NCBI RefSeq assembly: GCF_028823615.1
Contig: NZ_JAPEHT010000019.1
Coordinates: forward strand, 1 to 35,608
DNA length: 35,608 nucleotides
Source of the DNA: Planococcus sp. A6
GTDB taxonomy: Bacteria; Bacillota; Bacilli; Bacillales_A; Planococcaceae
Reading direction: 5' to 3'
Shown: one piece after another, positions 9,787 to 29,283 of the stretch
How the letters are laid out: each line of letters opens with the position of its first letter
Position numbering within the stretch: position 1 is the stretch's first letter
Translations under genes and position numbers: made by a program
The notes under the pieces: model-generated
Databases searched by the model: none
What the model saw: the letters and a program-made list of their open reading frames with translations, nothing else
What the model was told of the DNA's origin: nothing

Positions 9787-10448
9787 TTCAAGCGGTGCTG
9801 TTTGATTTGGACGGGACCTTGCTCAATCGGGATGCTTCAGTGGTGTCGTTTATCGACGATCAATACGAACGGATGCATGGATCTCTCGGGCATATTCCAA
9901 AGGACGTGTATGCCGAGCGCTTTATTGAATTGGACAGGCGGGGCTATGTGTGGAAAGACCGGGTCTATGCCCAGTTGATCCAGGAATTTGACATCGAACA
10001 GACAACGGTGGAACTTTTATTGGAAGATTATCTCGCCCATTTTCGTTTCCATTGCCATCCTTTCGATGGCCTTCAAGCAATGCTGGAGAGCTTGAAACAA
10101 CAAGGCGTGAAGCTAGGAATTATCTCGAATGGCAAAGGAAAGTTCCAGATGGATAATATTAAAGCCTTGGGAATCGAGAAGTGGTTTGATGTGATCTTGA
10201 TTTCTGAAAGCGAGAATTTAAGAAAGCCCGATCCGCGGATTTTTGAAAGAGCGATGGCCAGCTTGAATGCCTTGCCTTCCCACAGTTTGTTTGTCGGGGA
10301 TCATCCAACGACGGATGTAGAGGCCGCTAAAAATGCCGGCATGATCGGGGTATGGAAGAAAGATGCTGGGTGGAATGAAGCCGCGGCGGATTATGCTATA
10401 GATGAGTTGGACGAAGTGAATAGGATCGTCCAAGAGTTAAATGCATAA
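9783..10448 (+). CDS. HAD-superfamily hydrolase
   Basis: A 221-residue haloacid dehalogenase-fold phosphatase. Motif I is FDLDGTL (Asp8 nucleophile, Asp10 acid/base), motif II is IISNG, Lys is in LRKPDPRIF (motif III), and motif IV is GDHPTTD. The helical cap lies between motifs I and II (about 17-90), as in the phosphoglycolate phosphatase/beta-phosphoglucomutase group. It overlaps the histidine phosphatase gene upstream by 4 bp. A specific substrate cannot be assigned. Confidence 0.88.
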   Translation: MIQAVLFDLDGTLLNRDASVVSFIDDQYERMHGSLGHIPKDVYAERFIELDRRGYVWKDRVYAQLIQEFDIEQTTVELLLEDYLAHFRFHCHPFDGLQAMLESLKQQGVKLGIISNGKGKFQMDNIKALGIEKWFDVILISESENLRKPDPRIFERAMASLNALPSHSLFVGDHPTTDVEAAKNAGMIGVWKKDAGWNEAAADYAIDELDEVNRIVQELNA

Positions 10449-28035: not shown

Positions 28036-29283
28036 TCATGCTTGTTGAAATTTCTTCCCGGCATAAGGTGGCATCCCTGTTTTTTCACAGACGAGGATTT
28101 CCCGCAGGAACAACGACTTTTTCGCGATGCAGCGGTCAGTTATCGTGAACCCTGCTTGTTCGATCATATGGTCGATCGGTTCAATGGTGACAACGAGCAG
28201 TTTTTCGGTGACCGGCAAAGCGTGTTTCAGGATTTCCTGTTGTTCATCGGGGGTTGCGTGGGTGTACAGATTATAAGGCATGTCGATGATGGCGACGTCG
28301 TATTGCTCTGTAATGTCGGCAATTGCGCCCAAGTCGACCGACCCCGACAAGCCGAAATGCACAATGTTTTCCCGCGAACCGTCAACGACGAGTGGATTGA
28401 TGTCCCGGCCGACGATGTCGATCCCCATCGATAAAGCTTTGTCAACGACGAGTGGATTGATGTCCCGGCCGACGATGTCGATCCCCATCGATAAAGCTTC
28501 AACGAGCACTGTCCCGATGCCGCAGCAAGGGTCGATCGCTTTAACTCCCTTCGGATCCGGCACGGCAATATTGGCGATGGCGCGAGCGGTTTTCGTGCTG
28601 AGCGCAGTTGAGTATTCACGCGGTTTTTGCTGGTGCTTGAACCAGACGGATTCGCTCAATTGATAGATTCCGAAGTGCCAGCGGCCATCATATGGAATCA
28701 ACCCGAATATGATATCGGGGTTGTGGACATCGGCTTTTCCTTTAATGACAAAGCCGATTTGGCGCTCCATGTCACGCTTTTCGTCAAAATCCACTTGCTC
28801 AGCCGCGTCCAAGCCGTTGATTTTCGGAAAGATCACTTTAAATGTAGAATCTACCATGTCCAATCCACCAGCCCGTTTTACAATATCCGCGAACTCGGCT
28901 TCTTCAAACAAGAGCTCGATTCGTTCCTTGATGAATGGGCTCCGGCCTGGAGCGATGGCACGGCTGCTTTTGATGACTTTTTCGCCAGTGTCTTCACCGA
29001 AAAATGCACGCATTTCCAATTGGCATAAATCCTTCTCGTCTTGATGATATGCATAGGTATATATAAATCCGCCTGTTGGCGATAATGGTTTCAATTCATC
29101 CCGTCCTTCTTGAAGCTTGTTATCTTGAACAGTATACCAATTGTCTCGAATCAAAAGCGATAAATGCGGATAATGGGCTTCCAAATGGTGAGTTAGTTTA
29201 TGAAACAACAGAGACGCCTCACCAAAGGAGGAATAACAGGAGTTGAGCCGAATTGTAAAGCTAGAAGAAACTGGAAACATCAC
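28036..29283 (-). CDS. TRM11-type SAM-dependent RNA methyltransferase with internal duplication
   Basis: A 415-residue protein. From about residue 70 (GGFIYTYAYHQDEKDLCQLEMRAFFG) it matches Bacillus TRM11-like RNA methyltransferases. Motif I DPCCGIGT (251-258) binds SAM and DMPYN (334-338) takes the place of the [DN]PP[YF] catalytic motif. Between them, residues 262-281 and 282-301 are the same 20 residues (EALSMGIDIVGRDINPLVVD), the second copy starting Lys instead of Glu. The doubled element carries GRDINP, whose Asp normally holds the SAM ribose. The first ~69 residues are an extension not usual in this family. The start (GTG/ATG) lacks a strong ribosome site and may be further in. Confidence 0.8.
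   Translation of the reverse strand: MMFPVSSSFTIRLNSCYSSFGEASLLFHKLTHHLEAHYPHLSLLIRDNWYTVQDNKLQEGRDELKPLSPTGGFIYTYAYHQDEKDLCQLEMRAFFGEDTGEKVIKSSRAIAPGRSPFIKERIELLFEEAEFADIVKRAGGLDMVDSTFKVIFPKINGLDAAEQVDFDEKRDMERQIGFVIKGKADVHNPDIIFGLIPYDGRWHFGIYQLSESVWFKHQQKPREYSTALSTKTARAIANIAVPDPKGVKAIDPCCGIGTVLVEALSMGIDIVGRDINPLVVDKALSMGIDIVGRDINPLVVDGSRENIVHFGLSGSVDLGAIADITEQYDVAIIDMPYNLYTHATPDEQQEILKHALPVTEKLLVVTIEPIDHMIEQAGFTITDRCIAKKSLFLREILVCEKTGMPPYAGKKFQQA
28381..28500. repeat. Two 60-bp tandem copies inside the methyltransferase gene
   Basis: Positions 28381-28440 and 28441-28500 are identical at 59 of 60 bases; only the last base of each unit differs (T versus C). The unit is 20 codons, so the reading frame is kept. 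The near-perfect identity means a very recent event or an assembly error. Confidence 0.97.

What the first reader, a model, noticed from the sequence alone, without database searches (positions are those of the whole stretch)
28381..28500. In-frame 60-bp tandem duplication inside the SAM-binding fold of an RNA methyltransferase
The unit repeats with 59/60 identity and adds a second copy of the beta-strand and loop that carries GRDINP, directly after motif I. It should disturb SAM binding, yet the frame is preserved. It is a very recent slippage event, a phase-variation-like switch, or an assembly artefact.
Basis: seen in the sequence. Interest (0 to 1): 0.72.

Follow-up and report, generated by a model that had tools for sequence, protein, structure and literature searches.

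The report
False 60-base repeat from genome assembly
The repeated 60 bases in this methyltransferase gene are most likely an error made when a draft genome was pieced together, because the same draft carries other repeats of nearly the same length, one of which breaks a gene the bacterium should need to live.

Summary
In detail: window 28381-28440 and 28441-28500 are 59/60 identical, in frame in a minus-strand TrmG10/Trm11-like methyltransferase gene. The window is contig C110 of a 265-contig Planococcus draft, G000.

No relative examined has the repeat: 0 of 88 other distinct homologues has a residue in the 20 extra columns, and 44 of 44 other matching genus genomes are one unit shorter.

The repeat is not special to this gene. 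About 1.20 Mb of G000 (81 pieces) holds 12 two-copy near-exact repeats with periods of 57-63 bases. Controls of about 1.21 Mb distinct sequence hold 0 of 50-70 bases. Nine of the 12 were compared with relatives and are single-copy wherever the match is informative. Three start at contig coordinates 10,003, 10,005 and 10,007. One frameshifts the only ispE found, in a genome without a detected HMG-CoA reductase.

The best reading is assembly error: overlapping pieces of about 59 bases laid end to end without merging. Which assembly step did it is not shown, and three side tests of it gave nothing or failed. Raw reads would settle it. Interest is low.

The parts
28036..29094 (-). TrmG10/Trm11-like RNA methyltransferase gene (352 residues as assembled, 20 of them from the repeat). 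The mechanical ORF runs to 29283.
   Evidence: ORF; Pfam UPF0020 E 3.5e-12; TIGR01177 E 3.3e-21 but 76 bits against a cut-off of 316.55; PDB TrmG10 chains E 7e-14, searched with the P. citreus protein. The start at 29094 is inferred from homology.
28441..28500 (-). first copy in reading order (EALSMGIDIVGRDINPLVVD), directly after motif I
28381..28440 (-). second copy in reading order (KALSMGIDIVGRDINPLVVD); runs on into GSRENI as in the relatives
   Evidence: relatives hold this stretch once
28440..28440 (.). the joint: the one base not explained by either copy (coding-strand A), read as the seam of two uncollapsed overlapping pieces
   Evidence: comparison with relatives; the reading as a seam is inference

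Best explanation
The repeat is an assembly artefact of the draft genome. Shown: the sampled third of this draft holds 12 two-copy tandem repeats of about 59 bases, in several unrelated genes and intergenic stretches, and the sampled sequence of other genomes holds none of that size. Inferred: two pieces of sequence that truly overlap by about 57-62 bases were laid end to end, sometimes with a stray base, instead of being merged on their overlap, so the shared stretch appears twice. Here the result is 60 bases, in frame by chance; elsewhere in the same draft it is 59 and breaks the frame. In the living cell the methyltransferase gene is most likely single-copy and ordinary.
For: (1) 12 two-copy near-exact repeats in 81 pieces (about 1.20 Mb, a third) of G000: periods 57 (4), 59 (4), 60 (1), 61 (2), 63 (1); mean 59.1, s.d. 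1.8. (2) 0 of 50-70 bases in 1,247,727 control bases, of which 39,715 are shared between control sets: 20 pieces of G005/G020, 20 pieces of five other drafts, 80 genome-contig loci. (3) Nine of the 12 compared with relatives; every informative relative is single-copy. (4) Three of 12 start at contig coordinates 10,003, 10,005 and 10,007; simulated chance of any 3 of 12 within 5 bases 2.7e-5, a test chosen after seeing the numbers. (5) The 59-base repeat on C194 splits ispE into two frames; G000 has no other ispE match over the cut-off and no HMG-CoA reductase match. [quoted passage not shown] (6) Of seven repeats that lie wholly inside a coding frame, as I read the translations, three shift the frame. 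(7) The rest of the methyltransferase shows no decay: 0 private changes at columns invariant in the 35 other members of its clade.
Against: No raw reads were seen. The joint carries one base that a plain exact overlap does not supply, and the 12 joints range from 3 shared bases to 6 unexplained bases. Contig ends do not show shared words of about 60 bases: of 60 ends from the 41 pieces then held, two gave hits, of 28 and 30 bases. About 1.3 kb next to the counterpart of the window's right end in P. citreus has no close match in G000, so no contig overlap could be measured there. My own prediction that contigs C203 and C211, slightly short for their rank, would hold a repeat in their tails failed, 2 of 2. 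So the assembly step is not identified. Four of the seven coding repeats keep the frame, against about one in three expected by chance; the number is too small to weigh.
Confidence: 0.95

Rival explanations
1. A real, very recent tandem duplication in this strain, made by replication slippage between short repeats. The single-copy stretch is flanked by TCGTTGA, 57 bases apart, in this strain.
For: The frame is kept; TCGTTGA flanks the stretch in G000 and in G020; AlphaFold2 still builds the fold with one copy looped out (mean pLDDT 80.9 against 86.9 for the P. citreus protein).
Against: Slippage at TCGTTGA would give 57 bases, not 60. Eleven other repeats of the same size lie elsewhere in the sampled third of the draft, three at nearly one contig coordinate, one inside the only ispE found.
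Confidence: 0.03
2. A phase-variation switch: cells alternate between one-copy and two-copy methyltransferase by gain and loss of the unit.
For: Two near-perfect adjacent copies could recombine. No positive evidence from any call.
Against: 0 of 88 other distinct homologues has two copies; 44 of 44 other genus genomes with a match are one unit shorter. Phase-variable repeats are usually short units in many copies, and a 60-base unit would not switch the frame (general knowledge). No second genome of this strain was available.
Confidence: 0.005
3. A biological, genome-wide process in this strain that makes tandem duplications of about 59 bases, for example a defect in processing DNA flaps.
For: 12 repeats of one size in about 1.20 Mb and none in controls; nine of the 12 shown to be absent from relatives.
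Against: Known slippage and flap mutants give a wide range of lengths with flanking short repeats (recalled). Here 4 of 12 joints have neither shared nor extra bases and 4 have unexplained bases; three nearly share one contig coordinate; ispE is broken.
Confidence: 0.015

Closest known systems
False duplications in genome assemblies (PMC9516828, passages read; PMC2864568, search listing only)
   Same: A second copy exists only in the assembly. PMC9516828 names systematically piled-up erroneous reads and incorrect gap filling among the causes, and finds false copies inside coding sequence.
   Different: Those reports concern vertebrate diploids, with allele-derived copies as the major source. 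Here the copies are about 59 bases, adjacent and of nearly fixed length, in a bacterium.
Archaeal TrmG10 tRNA (guanine(10)-N2)-dimethyltransferase (PDB 6zxv, 6zxw, 6zxy)
   Same: The P. citreus counterpart matches it over residues 106-243 at E 7e-14.
   Different: Bacterial; the window protein is below the TIGR01177 cut-off; the motif reads DMPYN in all 30 aligned rows, where TrmG10-like enzymes have a DPPY-type motif (recalled). Substrate untested.

Membership tests
Assembly-made tandem duplication | Recurs at one characteristic length elsewhere in the same assembly | tested here: met
   12 two-copy near-exact repeats with periods 57-63 in about 1.20 Mb of G000; four other repeats there are short ones of 15, 18, 18 and 37 bases
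Assembly-made tandem duplication | Absent from close relatives and from other assemblies scanned alike | tested here: met
   0 of 50-70 bases in about 1.21 Mb of distinct control sequence; nine of 12 loci single-copy in every informative relative. Three loci (C216, C227, C229) not compared.
Assembly-made tandem duplication | Biologically untenable instances | tested here: met
   the only ispE over the cut-off is frameshifted; no HMG-CoA reductase match
Assembly-made tandem duplication | Traces of the overlap at contig ends or in contig sizes | tested here: not met
   no shared terminal words near 60 bases among 60 contig ends; contig-size prediction failed 2 of 2. Not a required feature, but it would have named the step.
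Assembly-made tandem duplication | Reads support one copy only | not testable with these tools
   no raw reads held
Phase-variable methyltransferase | Copy number varies between relatives | tested here: not met
   88 of 88 other distinct homologues are single-copy
Phase-variable methyltransferase | Mixed copy numbers within the strain | not testable with these tools
   no reads and no second genome of the strain
TIGR01177 (TrmG10-like methyltransferase) | Score over the curated cut-off | tested here: not met
   76 bits against 316.55; related to it, not filed as a member
Pfam UPF0020 (RMKL-like methyltransferase domain) | Score over the gathering cut-off | tested here: met
   46.9 bits against 22.3

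The most novel reading that the evidence does not exclude
The strain really carries some 30-35 fresh tandem duplications of about 59 bases (12 in the sampled third of the genome, scaled up), made by a length-measuring process not described before, and tolerates the one in ispE by some bypass.
Probability: 0.015. Interest if true: 0.75.

Novelty: not a real feature. Interest (0 to 1): 0.07.

Why it matters
The repeat would mislead anyone who reads it as a switch or a new protein variant. The wider result is practical: if the sampled third is typical, this draft holds some 30-35 false repeats of about 59 bases, some of which break genes on paper, including ispE. Protein records derived from it should be treated with care. 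A scan for private tandem repeats of one length is a cheap check that could be run on other drafts before such features are interpreted.

Tried and rejected
Slippage at flanking microhomology: TCGTTGA flanks the single-copy stretch, 57 bases apart, but the unit is 60 with an unexplained base. This reading was dropped after the other 11 repeats were found.

Gene decay: no clear sign. Private changes at columns invariant in the other 35 clade members: 0 for this gene. Against P. citreus there are 55 differences over the stop-to-stop frame with one copy left out. Polarised with G020 (L083), 15 fall on the G000 side (6 nonsynonymous, 9 synonymous), 34 on the P. citreus side (7 and 27), and 6 are unresolved (my tally). 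The G000 share of nonsynonymous changes is higher, but the numbers are small and I ran no test.

Scaffold gaps turned into repeats: in the first 61 pieces the only N outside three unheld contigs is one single base. Shared overlaps at contig ends: not found. Contig adjacency at the window's end: no neighbour found. Ranked contig sizes as a sign of removed gaps: the prediction failed for C203 and C211. Finding the genome in print: one search, 0 papers. Papers on short false tandem repeats in bacterial drafts: the listings named none, which is a weak negative because only the top 10, 8 and 3 papers were listed.

Rows left out of the count of 12: other tandem repeats in G000 at L120 (period 37), L184 (15) and L198 (18) and at L259 (18). 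Control rows outside 50-70 bases: L035 (39, twice) and L063 (42); a looser setting also gives their double periods 78 and 84. The second batch of G000 was scanned with looser settings; its four counted repeats pass the stricter ones too. Some control pieces overlap each other by 39,715 bases in all.

Alignments for the folds: I first listed 33 rows and 32 rows; both were turned back for a stop in L030. I then left out L030 and also L055 and L076, which I thought likely to hold a stop too.

Full report
WHAT IS THERE. Window 28381-28440 and 28441-28500 are a tandem repeat, 59/60 identical. They lie in frame in a minus-strand gene and add 20 residues after motif I of a SAM-dependent methyltransferase. 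The protein is related to UPF0020, to TIGR01177 below its cut-off, and to archaeal TrmG10 (searched with the P. citreus protein).

WHERE IT IS. The window is G000:C110:1-35608, in a draft of 3,521,403 bases in 265 contigs. The best match in genome contigs is Planococcus citreus DSM 20549 (L002), and the genus search found 45 further genomes of the same genus, so G000 is a Planococcus by inference; its name is not given.

RELATIVES. In 78 of 80 genome-contig loci the motif I region could be read and shows one copy (L059 and L069 gave no motif). In the genus, 45 of 46 genomes match, G000 included; G019 has no match. In 44 of 44 others the matched span is 52-68 bases shorter than in G000. Of 110 loci, 108 gave a usable frame and 89 distinct sequences; none of the 88 others has a letter in the 20 extra columns.

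THE TEST THAT DECIDES. If assembly made the repeat, others of like size should occur in this draft and not elsewhere. I scanned 61 pieces of G000 including the window (925,108 non-N bases) and then 20 more (275,965 bases). The near-exact two-copy repeats, given as period/exact run, are: C110:28381 60/59; C200:18720 61/60; C220:10392 57/58; C190:11882 57/56; C191:6246 63/57; C194:10005 59/62; C197:5073 59/60; C213:16614 61/61; C216:10007 57/57; C224:11915 57/57; C227:10003 59/59; C229:2634 59/60. Mean period 59.1, s.d. 1.8. Controls: 400,000 bases of G005 and G020, 296,421 bases of five other drafts and 551,306 bases of 80 genome-contig loci gave 0 repeats of 50-70 bases; 39,715 of these bases are shared between sets. 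The chance that all of the first eight fall in G000 by sampling alone is 0.001. That figure ignores the tight length, which is the stronger point.

RELATIVES AT THE OTHER SITES. C200: 9 of 9 single-copy. C220: 3 of 9 informative (G020, G037, G043), all single-copy; the others differ in this stretch. C190: 5 of 5. C191: 3 of 5 informative (G029, G020, G001), all single-copy. C194: 5 of 5. C197: 5 of 5. C213: 3 of 3 with a match, of 5 relatives searched. C224: 1 of 1 sister piece on hand.

EFFECT ON GENES. Seven repeats lie wholly inside a coding frame as I read the translations. C110 (this gene), C190, C216 (reads as smc) and C224 (reads as ribBA) keep the frame. C194 (ispE), C227 (reads as a PucR-like regulator) and C229 (reads as an ABC substrate-binding protein) lose it. 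Names other than ispE and this gene are my reading of the translation, not a family search. The other five touch gene ends or intergenic sequence. ispE appears as two abutting fragments, one over the cut-off (269 bits) and one not (76 bits); a third match, on C91, is weak (19.4 bits). The genome gave no match to HMG-CoA reductase, while the same search finds it in 5 of 14 control genomes, so the mevalonate route looks absent and IspE should be needed. The abstract start of PMC3340893 (listing) says IspE is essential by genetic methods.

COORDINATES. Three of 12 repeats start at 10,003, 10,005 and 10,007 of their contigs. In two million random placements a fraction of 2.7e-5 had any three within five bases. 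The test was chosen after seeing the numbers. A biological process does not know contig coordinates.

HOW IT PROBABLY AROSE. Two overlapping pieces were set end to end without merging an overlap of about 57-62 bases. By period minus exact run, 4 of 12 seams have neither extra nor shared bases, 4 have unexplained bases (1, 1, 1, 6) and 4 have shared bases (1, 1, 1, 3), which may be chance. The program step is not shown, and three side tests of it gave nothing or failed.

IF IT WERE REAL. AlphaFold2 on the two-copy protein (30 rows) gives mean pLDDT 80.9 with residues 203-221 below 50; strand 2 is formed by residues 225-231, from the second copy. The P. citreus protein (29 rows) gives 86.9 with strand 2 at 206-211. 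So one copy could loop out. All other rows have a gap there, which favours this answer.

VERDICT. An assembly artefact, confidence 0.95.

Noticed in passing
L187:10005-10125 (G000 contig C194): The only ispE found over the cut-off in this draft is split by a 59-base tandem repeat; single-copy in 5 of 5 relatives.
   Followed up: yes
L252:10007, L187:10005, L261:10003: Three of the repeats start within 5 bases of contig coordinate 10,005, as if pieces had been cut near 10 kb with about 60 bases of overlap.
   Followed up: partly
G019 (search): One of 46 genus genomes, a single 3.3 Mb contig, has no DNA match to this methyltransferase gene, so the gene may be dispensable or strongly diverged there.
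   Followed up: no
window 28036-29094: The Bacillales homologues share an invariant IIDMPYN motif (30 of 30 aligned rows) where TrmG10-like enzymes have a DPPY-type motif (recalled).
   Followed up: no
L120:3062 (G000 contig C80): A 37-base tandem repeat with an exact run of 34, of a different size from the 12 counted; perhaps a natural repeat array.
   Followed up: no
window 35608 (right contig end): About 1.3 kb of P. citreus sequence next to the counterpart of the contig end has no close match in G000, so the draft may lack it or the strains differ here.
   Followed up: no
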